Origin: Salinicola peritrichatus
GTDB lineage: Bacteria; Pseudomonadota; Gammaproteobacteria; Pseudomonadales; Halomonadaceae
DNA: 38,807 nucleotides
Direction: 5' to 3'
Assembly: GCF_003206715.1 (NCBI RefSeq)
Contig: NZ_PZJU01000042.1
Location: 1-38,807 of the forward strand
The first letter of the stretch is position 1; the number at the start of each line of letters is the position of its first letter. Under the pieces are notes generated by a model. That model was not told the origin of the DNA. It was given only the letters and a program-made list of their open reading frames with translations, and did no database searches. Below are positions 1,659 through 5,875 of the stretch, piece after piece. The position numbers and the translations under genes were made by a program.

Positions 1659-2264
1659 ATGGGTGCCAGAGAGACCGATCAACAACTCGTCGAGCGCGCC
1701 CAGAAGGGGGATACCCGAGCCTTCGATCTACTGGTCAAGAAGTATCAGCACAAGATCCTCGGCCTGATCGGCCGTTACGTCCAGGACCACGCCGAAGTTC
1801 AGGACGTAGCCCAGGAAGCCTTCATCAAAGCGTATCGCGCCCTGGGCAGTTTTCGCGCCGAGAGCGCGTTCTACACCTGGATGTACCGCATCGCCATCAA
1901 CACGGCGAAGAATTATCTGGTGTCGCGAGGGCGGCGGCCGCCGGGCAGCGACCTGGACATCAGCGACGCCGAAGTCGTCGATCAGAGCGGGCGGCTGTCG
2001 GATATCGAGTCACCGGAAGCGGCCATTGCCCGTGACCAACTGGAAGCGGCGGTGTTCGAGGCGATCGAGAACCTGCCGGACGACTTGCGTACCGCCATCA
2101 CGCTGCGGGAATTCGACGGTCTCTCCTATGAGGACATTGCCACCATCATGGAGTGCCCCGTCGGCACGGTGCGTTCACGCATCTTCCGCGCTCGGGAAGC
2201 GGTCGACAAACATATCCATCCGTTGCTGGAGCGAAGTGCGCAGGATGCCGCGAACGAATCTTGA
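1659..2264 (+). CDS. rpoE: RNA polymerase sigma factor RpoE/AlgU (sigma-E)
   Basis: Extracytoplasmic-function sigma factor that directs RNA polymerase to envelope-stress promoters. The 201-residue protein has an ECF region 2 (FDLLVKKYQHKILGLIGRY, then DVAQEAFIKAYRAL and YTWMYRIAINTAKNYL) and a region 4 helix-turn-helix (LPDDLRTAITLREFDGLSYEDIA, then CPVGTVRSRIFRARE). These read like the Pseudomonas AlgU/E. coli RpoE subgroup along the whole length. The ATG follows an excellent ribosome-binding site (GGGGAGGAG). The next genes encode its anti-sigma factor RseA and RseB, with the protease DegP after them. Activity is expected to be set by RseA binding at the inner membrane. Confidence 0.97.
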   Translation: MGARETDQQLVERAQKGDTRAFDLLVKKYQHKILGLIGRYVQDHAEVQDVAQEAFIKAYRALGSFRAESAFYTWMYRIAINTAKNYLVSRGRRPPGSDLDISDAEVVDQSGRLSDIESPEAAIARDQLEAAVFEAIENLPDDLRTAITLREFDGLSYEDIATIMECPVGTVRSRIFRAREAVDKHIHPLLERSAQDAANES

Positions 2265-2426: not shown

Positions 2427-3176
2427 ATGAAGCAGGTACGTGAGTCGTTTTCCGCGCTGATGGACAACGAAGCCGACGAATTCGATCTACGCCGGGTTCT
2501 CAAGAGCCTGGGAAGCGCATCGGAAGAGTCGGACACGTGGCGACGCTACCATTTGGCTCGCAGCATGATGCAACGCGAGCGGGACGCGGTCGTCAACATC
2601 GACATCTCCGGGGACGTGATGGCAGCGCTGGCCGATGAACCCCAGCCGCTCTCGGCGCCGGGGCACGAATCGACGAAACGTCACTCGTTCTCCTTCATGG
2701 GCGGTGCTGCGGTGGCCGCGGCGGTATCGCTGATGGTGATCGCCGGCGCCCAGGTCTACAACGGTCGATTCGCCGGTGATACCGAGAGCTCCCCTGACGT
2801 CGCCAGTGGTACCGTGCTGCCGCCCTCGAGCGGTACTCAGCCATCGTTTGCGTCCGAGACCTCGTCCGGCGGCAATGGTGTCATGCCCGCCTCTATGCAG
2901 GCGCCTGCCTCCGACGGGCTGCCGTATTTCTCGGCCAACGGCGCCGGCAGCGGCCTGATGACGATTGGCGAGAACGTCATGTCGCCGATGTTTCTTTCCT
3001 CCGGTTCCGAGCAGCCAAGCATCGATAGAGAGCAGGCGGAAACGTTGCAGTCCTATCTCGAACGTCACTCGCTGGGCGCGGCCTACAGCACTGGCGATAG
3101 TTGGATGCCGCTGCTGCGCGCGCCGGGTACGTATGCCAGCCAGTTGAACAGCATCGGAGCCACGGAAACGCGCTGA
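2427..3176 (+). CDS. rseA: Anti-sigma-E factor RseA/MucA
   Basis: Inner-membrane anti-sigma factor that holds sigma-E inactive until envelope stress triggers its proteolysis. The 249-residue product has the RseA N-terminal sigma-binding domain (residues 1 to about 80: VRESFSALMDNEADEFDLRRVL, then the WRRYHLARSMM helix). One membrane span follows near residues 92-112 (GGAAVAAAVSLMVIAGAQVY), then a Ser/Gly/Pro-rich periplasmic part of about 135 residues. The ATG at 2427 follows GAGGGTG and starts directly at the conserved domain; the frame is open upstream to 2304, but that part is not RseA-like. The stop overlaps the rseB start (TGATG), indicating translational coupling. The periplasmic C-terminal segment is the expected site for DegS-type cleavage and RseB binding. 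Confidence 0.93.
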   Translation: MKQVRESFSALMDNEADEFDLRRVLKSLGSASEESDTWRRYHLARSMMQRERDAVVNIDISGDVMAALADEPQPLSAPGHESTKRHSFSFMGGAAVAAAVSLMVIAGAQVYNGRFAGDTESSPDVASGTVLPPSSGTQPSFASETSSGGNGVMPASMQAPASDGLPYFSANGAGSGLMTIGENVMSPMFLSSGSEQPSIDREQAETLQSYLERHSLGAAYSTGDSWMPLLRAPGTYASQLNSIGATETR

Positions 3177-4235
3177 TGTCGCTGCACCGCGTAGGGAGCG
3201 TTGCGCTGTTGATGGCGGTCTCGGTCGGTGCCGCGGTAGCGCAAGACTCACCCTCGTCATCTCCGGCCGCTGAAGAAACGTTCGATTGCGCTCGAATGGC
3301 GGAAGTCGACAAGGACGACGCGACACCGGAGGCACTCTTCGAGCGGAGCCTGTGGGCGGGGCATTGCTATCGCTTCAGCGCAAGAGCCGTGCGTATCAGC
3401 TTCGACGGCGTTCGCACACTGGCGCTTACCCACTCGATCGACCAGGGCATCGAAACCGAGGCCGCGAGATTCCTCGATGGTCCGCCGGTGGCGATCGAAA
3501 AGCGCGGCGGGGTGAACAAAAGGGCGGCTGGCAGCGGCGTGCTCGACTTCTCCACCGGCATGTCGCCGGCCCAGTTGGCCCGCCACGTGGCCCGGTACTA
3601 CCGCCTGCAACCCGTTGAACTCGAGCGTATCGCCGGGCGAGCGGCCTGGCGGCTCGATATCGAGCCGCAGGACTCCCTGCGCTATGGCTATCGGCTGTGG
3701 CTCGATCGGGAAACCGCACTCCCGCTCAAGCAGGAGATGATCGATATCAATGGCCAGGTCATCGAGACCTTCCAGATCACCGAACTTCAGAACCCTGAGC
3801 TCTATCAGGGAGTCTTGAGCCTGGGACCCGAGCGCAATCCGACAACGTCGCCTTGGGATGCCCAATGGCTGCCCGCCGGATTCATCGCGCAACCGGTTCC
3901 CGCGCGCAGTCCCGGAGAGATGGCGCGTACCGAACATCGTCTCTACAGTGATGGCTTGACCAGCATCAGCCTGTTCGTGGAGCCGATTACCGGTTCGCGC
4001 CCACCGCTCAAGGCCGGCGTGCATCGGCTCGGTATTTCCTTCGCTGCCGTGTCACGTCGTGCACGACGGGCGCCCGATGCAGATTCTAGTGCTGGGCGAG
4101 GCGCCTGCGGAAGTCCTGGCGCGGATCGCCGTTCAGGTGAGCTGGAGCGGCACCGGAAACGCCGGTGCCGCCACGGCCAATACGGGTGAGGGTGCGTCCA
4201 GGGATGATCCTTCCTCCGCCGACACTGGCTCCTGA
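3176..4235 (+). pseudogene. rseB: rseB/mucB, sigma-E regulatory protein, with an apparent frameshift near the 3' end
   Basis: RseB/MucB is a periplasmic lipid- and porin-sensing protein that binds RseA and shields it from cleavage. The frame opening at 3176 has a signal peptide (LLMAVSVGAAVAQ) and a normal body: a first domain with LFERSLWAGHCYRFSARAV, then GYRLWLDRETALPLKQEMID and ITELQNPEL. After GVHRLGISFAAV (about 4048) the frame turns into an Arg/Gly/Ser-rich tail and ends at 4189. The +1 frame from about 4053 reads HVVHDGRPMQILVLGEAPAE and continues VLARIAVQVSW before a Ser/Gly/Ala-rich tail, ending at 4235. That looks like the conserved RseB C-terminus. One extra base, or two lost, between about 4043 and 4059 explains this. 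It could be a real mutation or a sequence error. As read, the product is 337 residues with about 45 residues of wrong C-terminus. Confidence 0.8.
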
Positions 4236-4286
4236 ATTCCTACCGACTTGCCGGCCACTCAATGCAAAGAATCTTTACATCTCATT

Positions 4287-4456: not shown

Positions 4457-5875
4457 ATGGAACGCATGACAAGATGGTTCGCTCCCTGGCTGCTGATGGC
4501 CGTGGCCTTGCTGTCAGTCCAGACGGCTCAGGCGCGCGAACTGCCGGACTTCACCGAACTGGTCAAGCAGGCCGCCCCCGGCGTGGTCAACATCTCGACG
4601 ACCAGCACGATCAGTGCCGCGAGCGGTCCTTACGCTCAACAGGACATCCCCGAGATCTTTCGGCGGTTCTTCGGTGACCAGATGCCGCCGATGCCCGGCA
4701 TGCCCGGCGGCAACGAGGAACGCAAGTCGCTGGGCTCCGGATTCGTCATCCGCAAGGACGGTTACATTCTGACCAATGCGCACGTGGTCAAGGATGCCGA
4801 CGAGATCATGGTGCGCCTCAACGATCGGCGGGAACTGCCCGCGAAACTGGTGGGTTCCGATGCGCGCACCGATGTGGCGCTGCTCAAGGTCGATGCCGAT
4901 GATTTGCCGACATTGAAAATCGGCGACTCGGATGACTTGCAGGTCGGCGAGTGGGTGGCGGCCATTGGCTCGCCGTTCGGCTTCGACCACTCCGTGACGG
5001 CGGGCATCGTCAGCGCCATCAATCGCACGCTGCCTAGCGACACCTACGTACCGTTCATCCAGACCGACGTCGCGATCAACCCCGGTAACTCCGGCGGTCC
5101 GCTGTTCAACCTGGACGGCGAAGTGGTGGGTATCAACTCGCAGATCTATACCCGTAGCGGCGGTTTCATGGGGCTCTCCTTCGCCATCCCGATCAGTGTC
5201 GCGATGGACGTCGCCGACCAGTTGCGCACCGAAGGCCATGTCAGCCGTGGCTGGCTCGGCGTCGTGATCCAGCCGGTCTCCAAGGATCTGGCCGAGTCCT
5301 TCGGGCTCGACGACACGCGCGGCGCCCTGGTCTCCGATGTCACCGACGACAGCCCGGCCAAGAAAGCCGGCCTGAAGGCGGGCGACGTGATCCTGAGCGT
5401 CAATGGCGAGGCCATCGACGACTCCACCACCTTGCCCCGACTGATCGGTCGGGTATCCCCCGGCGACGACGTCAAGCTCAAGGTCATGCGTGATGGCGAC
5501 CAGCGCAACATCGATGTCACCGTCGGCGACTGGCCGGAGGAGATGACCGCGGATGGCTCGTCGTCAACCGGCAAGGCGACCGACGATCAGGCCAAGCTGG
5601 GTATCGCCATCAGCGATCTCAACGATCAGCAGAAGCAGCAACTCGACATCGACAGCGGCGTGCTCGTACGTCGTGTCGATCCGCGCGGTGCCGCGGCGGC
5701 TGCCGGCATTCAGCCGGGGGACGTGATCGTCAGCTTCGATCAGAAGCCGGTCGACAACGCCGACCAGTTGATCGAAGCGGTCAAGCAGGTCGACGAGGAT
5801 CGGGCCGTACCGGTGCGCATCGTGCGTGACGGCAACTCGTTGTTCGTGGCGCTGCGATTGAAGGCCCAGGACTGA
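4457..5875 (+). CDS. degP: Periplasmic serine endoprotease DegP/DegQ/MucD (HtrA family)
   Basis: Degrades and refolds misfolded periplasmic proteins. The 472-residue protein has a Sec signal peptide ending near ALLSVQTAQA (residues 15-24). A trypsin-like domain carries the catalytic triad His109 (TNAHVV), Asp139 (RTDVALLK) and Ser212 (GNSGGPLF). Two PDZ domains follow, at about 265-355 (GWLGVVIQPV...GALVSDV...GLKAGDVI) and 380-470 (LGIAISDL...GVLVRRV...GIQPGDVI). The start follows TTAGGAG. Its position right after rseB is that of mucD in Pseudomonas, but no mucC lies between. MucD-type proteases damp sigma-E signalling by removing the misfolded proteins that activate it, so the product would close a feedback loop on RpoE. 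DegP and DegQ cannot be separated by sequence alone here. Confidence 0.95.
   Translation: MERMTRWFAPWLLMAVALLSVQTAQARELPDFTELVKQAAPGVVNISTTSTISAASGPYAQQDIPEIFRRFFGDQMPPMPGMPGGNEERKSLGSGFVIRKDGYILTNAHVVKDADEIMVRLNDRRELPAKLVGSDARTDVALLKVDADDLPTLKIGDSDDLQVGEWVAAIGSPFGFDHSVTAGIVSAINRTLPSDTYVPFIQTDVAINPGNSGGPLFNLDGEVVGINSQIYTRSGGFMGLSFAIPISVAMDVADQLRTEGHVSRGWLGVVIQPVSKDLAESFGLDDTRGALVSDVTDDSPAKKAGLKAGDVILSVNGEAIDDSTTLPRLIGRVSPGDDVKLKVMRDGDQRNIDVTVGDWPEEMTADGSSSTGKATDDQAKLGIAISDLNDQQKQQLDIDSGVLVRRVDPRGAAAAAGIQPGDVIVSFDQKPVDNADQLIEAVKQVDEDRAVPVRIVRDGNSLFVALRLKAQD

What the first reader, a model, noticed from the sequence alone, without database searches (positions are those of the whole stretch)
4030..4235. 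Apparent +1 frameshift destroys the C-terminus of RseB
The frame from 3176 is RseB-like up to GVHRLGISFAAV, then becomes an Arg/Ser/Gly-rich tail ending at 4189. The neighbouring frame from about 4053 reads HVVHDGRPMQILVLGEAPAE and VLARIAVQVSW, which looks like the missing RseB C-terminus, and stops at 4235. The break lies between about 4043 and 4059, with no long homopolymer there. If real, RseB would protect RseA poorly and sigma-E would be partly derepressed, as in mucB-defective mucoid Pseudomonas. If it is an error, it marks an assembly problem.
Basis: partly seen in the sequence, partly recalled or inferred. Interest (0 to 1): 0.72.

Follow-up and report, generated by a model that had tools for sequence, protein, structure and literature searches.

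The report
Frameshifted stress-sensor gene rseB in Salinicola
A salt-loving bacterium carries a broken copy of rseB, a brake on its envelope-stress response; related species have deleted the same gene more than once and their RseA proteins then lost the patch that RseB would grip, so this may be an early stage of a repeated loss, though a sequencing error is not excluded.

Summary
The frame break is really in the sequence. The window is a Salinicola draft genome with algU-rseA-rseB-mucD-lepA. In 10 of 10 congeners with rseB the C-terminal segment lies in the same frame as the rest; the window is two nucleotides shorter than the nine aligned there, so the last third of the RseA-binding domain is replaced by an Arg-rich tail seen in no relative read. 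The displaced segment still shows a protein-like substitution pattern and RseA's docking segment is untouched, so the change is recent or an error.

The setting adds interest. RseB is absent from 7 of 18 Salinicola genomes and 50 of 275 family genomes (some incomplete). Within Salinicola the losses number at least two, three on the best tree. RseA's C-terminal docking segment is intact in 77 of 77 rseB-positive genomes checked, window included, and in 2 of 37 rseB-negative ones.

Best reading: a recent inactivating mutation, the first step of a loss that related lineages have completed. A draft error stays possible (about 0.3). Partial sigma-E derepression is an inference, not shown. Read mapping or resequencing decides.

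The parts
1659..2264 (+). algU (rpoE, sigma-E), intact
   Evidence: Sigma70_r2 and Sigma70_r4_2; 93-97% identical to AlgU of 13 loci L035-L047, 12 titled Salinicola and one Gammaproteobacteria bacterium MFB021
2427..3176 (+). rseA (mucA), intact anti-sigma factor
   Evidence: RseA_N PF03872, E 8.6e-17
3045..3119 (+). RseA C-terminal segment LQSYLERHSLGAAYSTGDSWMPLLR, proposed RseB-docking element; intact in the window
   Evidence: both motif elements present in 77 of 77 rseB-positive genomes and 2 of 37 rseB-negative ones; equivalence to MucA helix alpha-I is inferred, a profile search to anchor it failed
3176..4189 (+). rseB (mucB) reading frame, C-terminus frameshifted; its ATG overlaps the rseA stop
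   Evidence: MucB_RseB PF03888, E 6.9e-27; MucB_RseB_C PF17188 matched only at profile 3-65 of 97
3329..3796 (+). RseB N-terminal domain, intact
   Evidence: PF03888 residues 52-207, profile 3-166 of 178
3842..4036 (+). first two thirds of the RseB C-terminal domain
   Evidence: PF17188 residues 223-287
4043..4053 (+). frame break; two nucleotides fewer than in nine congeners
   Evidence: 12 nt between conserved blocks in L038-L046, 10 here
4052..4189 (+). out-of-frame Arg-rich tail, not found in the relatives read
4053..4235 (+). displaced RseB C-terminus in the other frame
   Evidence: 52-68% identical to the tail of L038-L046; synonymous differences exceed nonsynonymous in 8 of 9 and equal them in L039
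4055..4068 (+). perfect 14-nt palindrome next to the break
   Evidence: palindromes of 14 nt or more occur 51 times in 276 kb, so it may be chance; predicted single-strand DNA fold not unusual, z 0.09
4266..4279 (+). conserved element AAAGAATCTTTACA upstream of mucD
   Evidence: pattern found 174-192 nt before mucD in 18 of 18 Salinicola, rseB-negative ones included, and in 0 of 5 outgroup loci
4457..5875 (+). mucD (DegP/DegQ-type periplasmic protease), intact
   Evidence: Trypsin_2 and two PDZ_2 stretches

Best explanation
A recent, real frameshift in rseB of this Salinicola strain has destroyed the last third of the C-terminal domain of RseB. Shown from sequence: the frame break, the truncated domain match, the intact neighbours. 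Inferred: the C-terminal domain does not fold, RseB no longer docks on the C-terminal helix of RseA, RseA is less shielded from the site-1 protease, and AlgU (sigma-E) activity rises somewhat and loses the lipid/LPS input that passes through RseB, while the protease route that senses misfolded outer-membrane proteins still works. It is best seen as a first step of a loss of RseB that at least two other Salinicola lineages and several other genera of the family have completed by deletion; there the RseA docking segment is mostly eroded. In the window it is not, so the break is young.
For: Frame break against 10 of 10 congeners with rseB. PF17188 covers 3-65 of 97 positions here and 3-96 of 97 in S. 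salarius L041. In the model of that intact protein the break position falls inside strand 290-299, and strand 302-310 and helix 314-323 follow, at block pLDDT 86-87; in the model of the window protein most of the N-terminal domain stays confident but every block from residue 221 on is 34-55. RseB is absent by PF03888 from 7 of 18 Salinicola and 50 of 275 family genomes, or 41 of the 254 that are at least 90% complete and at most 5% contaminated. The rseA-mucD gap is 313-565 nt in the 7 against 1232-1596 nt in the 11 with rseB. The tree needs 3 changes; one single clade of all seven is disfavoured, p-AU 0.013. RseA docking elements are both intact in 77 of 77 rseB-positive and 2 of 37 rseB-negative genomes. 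Nine conserved genes of this part of the window have open frames.
Against: A single draft genome, no reads, no second strain. The displaced C-terminus and the RseA docking segment show no decay, as an error would also leave them. A palindrome sits beside the break. No measurement of sigma-E activity. AlphaFold is not a reliable judge of damaged proteins, and the linker at 221-260 is poorly modelled in the intact protein too. A joint loss in clades A and B is not excluded (p-AU 0.208). The docking patterns were written after the alignment was seen.
Confidence: 0.62

Rival explanations
1. Sequencing or assembly error: the strain has an intact rseB and the two-nucleotide shortfall is an artefact of the draft.
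For: The displaced C-terminus still looks selected as protein and RseA is unchanged. The assembly is a draft of 109 contigs and holds runs of two N. A palindrome lies at the break. One congener assembly, G017, has lepA in three pieces whose frame changes and returns, so faulty genomes do occur in this collection.
Against: Not a homopolymer. The window has no N; the 7 N pairs in the sampled stretches lie, by eye, at repeats, in an rRNA operon or between genes. A codon-usage frame census of 276 kb of this genome (271 kb of it not masked) gave 44 same-strand frame switches; the 5 with run-on of 39 nt or more were looked at by eye and read as neighbouring genes, the other 39 were not examined singly. 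The method saw 71 of 82 simulated mid-gene breaks and 41 of 68 late ones, and it did not flag the rseB break itself. Completeness 100, contamination 0.03.
Confidence: 0.3
2. The frame as written makes a working variant RseB, or a translational frameshift restores the C-terminus.
For: N-terminal lipid-binding-type domain intact; the reading frame stays open to 4189.
Against: None of the 19 relatives, nor those read, has this tail; no slippery or stop-codon-type frameshift motif is apparent by eye (no tool was run for it); the C-terminal domain match is cut and its model has low confidence.
Confidence: 0.06
3. A pre-existing relaxation (compatible with a real break): RseB had already lost its role in this lineage before the frameshift.
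For: Congeners live without RseB.
Against: RseA in the window keeps both docking elements, and over 30 codons of the displaced segment the window differs from nine relatives by 7-18 synonymous against 5-7 nonsynonymous codons.
Confidence: 0.08

Closest known systems
MucB of Pseudomonas aeruginosa and RseB of Escherichia coli
   Same: Same two Pfam domains and gene neighbours algU, rseA/mucA and mucD; the Foldseek matches of the intact congener's model with the lowest E-values are MucB and RseB chains (6jau_A E 2.0e-18)
   Different: The C-terminal domain is cut at profile position 65 of 97 in the window
mucB-deficient, mucoid P. aeruginosa
   Same: Loss of the periplasmic protector of the anti-sigma factor; delta-mucB raises alginate, less than delta-mucA does (PMC7400510, passage)
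   Different: No phenotype known here; RseB-negative relatives are ordinary named species, so the strain need not be mucoid
   Same: No functional RseB expected; AlgU, RseA and MucD kept
   Different: rseB wholly absent and RseA docking segment eroded; in the window rseB is only frameshifted and RseA intact

Membership tests
RseB/MucB | MucB_RseB N-terminal domain (PF03888) | tested here: met
   E 6.9e-27, profile 3-166 of 178
RseB/MucB | complete C-terminal domain (PF17188), the domain that binds the anti-sigma factor | tested here: not met
   profile 3-65 of 97; intact congener 3-96
RseB/MucB | gene between rseA and mucD downstream of algU | tested here: met
RseB/MucB | protects RseA from cleavage by the site-1 protease | not testable with these tools
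   needs protein work
RseB/MucB | signal peptide and periplasmic location | not tested
   no signal-peptide tool; the N-terminus looks like one by eye
inactivated gene (pseudogene) | frame disrupted relative to intact orthologues | tested here: met
   10 of 10 congeners with rseB keep the frame
inactivated gene (pseudogene) | disruption present in the organism and not only in the assembly | not testable with these tools
   no reads and no second strain held
inactivated gene (pseudogene) | relaxed selection after the break | tested here: not met
   displaced segment and RseA docking segment still conserved: too recent, or an error

The most novel reading that the evidence does not exclude
In Halomonadaceae the RseB sensor is lost again and again, and each loss frees the docking segment of RseA to decay while its cytoplasmic anti-sigma domain and a G-x-M-T segment before the docking segment stay; the window catches the opening step, with RseB just broken and its docking site not yet eroded. 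Sigma-E in these bacteria would have changed from a two-signal gate (lipid and outer-membrane protein) to a one-signal gate several times over.
Probability: 0.5. Interest if true: 0.58.

Novelty: new member of a known kind. Interest (0 to 1): 0.42.

Why it matters
RseB makes sigma-E activation depend on two signals. A family in which it is lost repeatedly, with the partner's docking site decaying afterwards, is a natural experiment on which residues of RseA serve RseB alone and on what RseB is worth outside the enterobacteria and pseudomonads. A strain at the very first step would let the cost and the effect of the loss be measured before compensation.

Tried and rejected
Programmed frameshifting: no relative read shows it and no motif is apparent by eye. 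Templated repair of a quasi-palindrome as the cause of the break: considered because of the 14-nt palindrome, but comparison with congeners by eye gave no sign that the change improves the pairing, the DNA fold is ordinary and such palindromes are common. Remnants of rseB in the gaps of the seven RseB-negative Salinicola: only short matches, best E 0.002 over 30 nt. Profile search of the RseA C-terminus against PDB sequences to anchor it on MucA: failed, best hits unrelated at E 0.23, so the equivalence of its conserved His with MucA H170 rests on pattern and position and on my recall of MucA. A Pfam scan at E up to 5 gave no C-terminal RseA family for the window's RseA. The first named-genome search with RseB itself found nothing; AlgU was used instead. 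Frame census by codon usage: helpful only as a loose bound, and blind to the rseB break. The docking test uses patterns written after the alignment was seen; its Fisher values ignore relatedness. Papers: PMC7400510 and PMC8545111 were seen as found passages only; all others as search listings. Searches for earlier reports of RseB loss in this group (8, 1, 2, 5 and 2 papers) listed none whose title or start of abstract deals with it; most subscription journals are not held.

Full report
What the window is. The window is contig 48 of a 4.62 Mb, 109-contig draft. Its AlgU is 93-97% identical to that of 13 loci (L035-L047; 12 titled Salinicola, one Gammaproteobacteria bacterium MFB021), closest S. 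rhizosphaerae at 97%. The operon is algU, rseA, rseB, mucD, then lepA.

The observation. The frame from 3176 is RseB by Pfam (MucB_RseB E 6.9e-27; MucB_RseB_C E 1.3e-9), but the C-terminal domain match stops at profile position 65 of 97; the intact protein of S. salarius matches 3-96 of 97. In 9 of 9 Salinicola-titled loci with rseB the missing segment follows in frame, with 12 nucleotides between the conserved blocks where the window has 10; the unnamed congener G014 also keeps the frame, making 10 of 10. Ten loci of other genera read to their stops keep it too. In a wider check of 77 sequences (window, 10 congeners, 66 others), 55 match a strict pattern of the in-frame C-terminus; 20 others are divergent but in frame by eye as far as printed, one runs off its contig, and the window is the only one with a broken tail. 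In the 17-row alignment the window alone diverges after the AAV that follows HRLGIS.

Age of the break. In the first 30 codons of the displaced segment the window differs from nine relatives by 7-18 synonymous and 5-7 nonsynonymous codons (equal, 7 and 7, in one of the nine); the 60 codons upstream give 20-25 and 16-21. The segment has thus been selected as protein until recently. RseA in the window also keeps its conserved C-terminal segment.

Structure. The model of the intact S. salarius RseB has mean pLDDT 70.3, and the PDB chains with the lowest E-values are MucB and RseB. The break position falls in strand 290-299; strand 302-310 and helix 314-323 are lost. In the model of the window protein blocks over residues 131-210 keep pLDDT 76-93, while blocks from residue 221 to the end are 34-55. 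In the intact protein blocks 261-320 are 76-87, though its linker at 221-260 is low as well, 37-57. Against 6jau_A the TM-score (target) falls from 0.69 to 0.47. In the solved complexes the C-terminal domain of MucB/RseB holds the main binding helix of MucA/RseA (residues 157-177 of MucA), and MucA changes at W158, R162 or H170 stop binding (PMC7400510, passages). The expected effect is therefore loss of RseA binding; this is inference.

RseB loss around the window. PF03888 is found in 11 of 18 Salinicola and in 225 of 275 genomes of the family, or 213 of the 254 good-quality ones. The 7 RseB-negative Salinicola keep algU, rseA and mucD, with 313-565 nt between the latter two, only short matches to the rseB part of relatives, and the conserved element upstream of mucD. 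On a tree of eight neighbouring proteins they fall in three places: A (G002, S. halophilus), B (S. endophyticus, G006, MFB021, G017) and S. rhizosphaerae; names were tied to handles by equal contig length. Three changes are the fewest. Holding all seven together is disfavoured (p-AU 0.013), as are B with S. rhizosphaerae (0.0045) and A with S. rhizosphaerae (0.0147); A with B is not (0.208). So two losses at least, three on the best tree; the window would be one more. Some rows were thinly filled (MFB021 26%, three outgroups 26-41%), deep branches had weak support in the first tree (40-66), and G017 is a poor assembly. Of the 43 RseB-negative family genomes outside Salinicola, 42 were searched for RseA_N (handles taken from their absence in the listing): 40 have it, and the two without are 66% and 71% complete.

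RseA after the loss. In 77 of 77 rseB-positive genomes checked (66 loci of other genera and 11 Salinicola, window included) RseA ends in a Y-L-x-x-H-type element followed by W-[ML]-P-[LMI]-[LM]-R. Of the 7 RseB-negative Salinicola none has both; 2 keep the first. Of the 40 RseA genes in other RseB-negative genomes 30 came as loci: 2 have both elements, 6 only the first, 2 only the second, 20 neither. One of the two exceptions (G131) ends its contig 16 nt after rseA, so the absence of rseB is unproven; the other (G133, 79% complete) has only 113 nt between rseA and mucD and may be a young deletion or a faulty bin. In Salinicola the three RseB-negative groups have eroded the segment in different ways, while a G-x-M-T segment before it stays. 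The patterns were chosen after seeing the alignment, and relatedness is not corrected for.

Real or error. For a real mutation: the change is not in a homopolymer, the genome is complete and clean by the listed figures, nine neighbouring genes are open, and the gene is one that this genus loses. For an error: one draft, no reads, no decay anywhere, and a palindrome at the spot. A codon-usage census of 276 kb of this genome gave 44 same-strand frame switches; the 5 with run-on of 39 nt or more were judged by eye to be neighbouring genes and the other 39 were not examined singly. The method missed 11 of 82 mid-gene and 27 of 68 late simulated breaks and did not flag rseB itself, so it bounds the error rate only loosely. 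I put a real mutation at about 0.62 and an error at about 0.3.

Verdict. A confirmed frameshift in an otherwise ordinary gene; the interest lies in the repeated loss of RseB in this family and in the matching decay of RseA, of which this may be the first step.

Noticed in passing
L037:8443-9942 (MFB021); G015:C22:27244-29043 and 66617-66715: lepA is split: a short stub beside mucD (match to LepA residues 2-34 with a stop inside) is followed by a tyrosine integrase (Arm-DNA-bind_3, Phage_integrase), and a lepA copy matching from residue 12 lies about 37.6 kb away on the same contig, as if an integrative element uses the 5' end of lepA and restores it. In S. endophyticus (G005) lepA also matches only from residue 12; Halomonas loci L076, L095 and L101 show lepA matches of only about 25 residues.
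   Followed up: partly
G017:C1:3882865-3884694: lepA lies in three pieces whose frame changes and returns in this single-contig genome (93% complete), a sign of an error-rich assembly.
   Followed up: no
window 4266-4279: AAAGAATCTTTACA-type element 174-192 nt upstream of mucD in 18 of 18 Salinicola and in 0 of 5 outgroup loci; function unknown, perhaps part of a promoter.
   Followed up: partly
rseA-mucD gaps of G005, G006, G015, G017, G002, G008: A GC-rich hairpin stands just after rseA in RseB-negative clades A and B, different in sequence between the two, like new terminators that close the shortened operon (seen by eye, not scanned).
   Followed up: no
L161 (G133), rseA to mucD: RseB-negative genome with an intact RseA docking segment and only 113 nt between rseA and mucD: a possible second very recent loss, or a faulty bin.
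   Followed up: partly
window 3649-3668: Perfect 20-nt palindrome GCGGCTCGATATCGAGCCGC inside rseB, the longest of 11 palindromes of 14 nt or more in the window.
   Followed up: no
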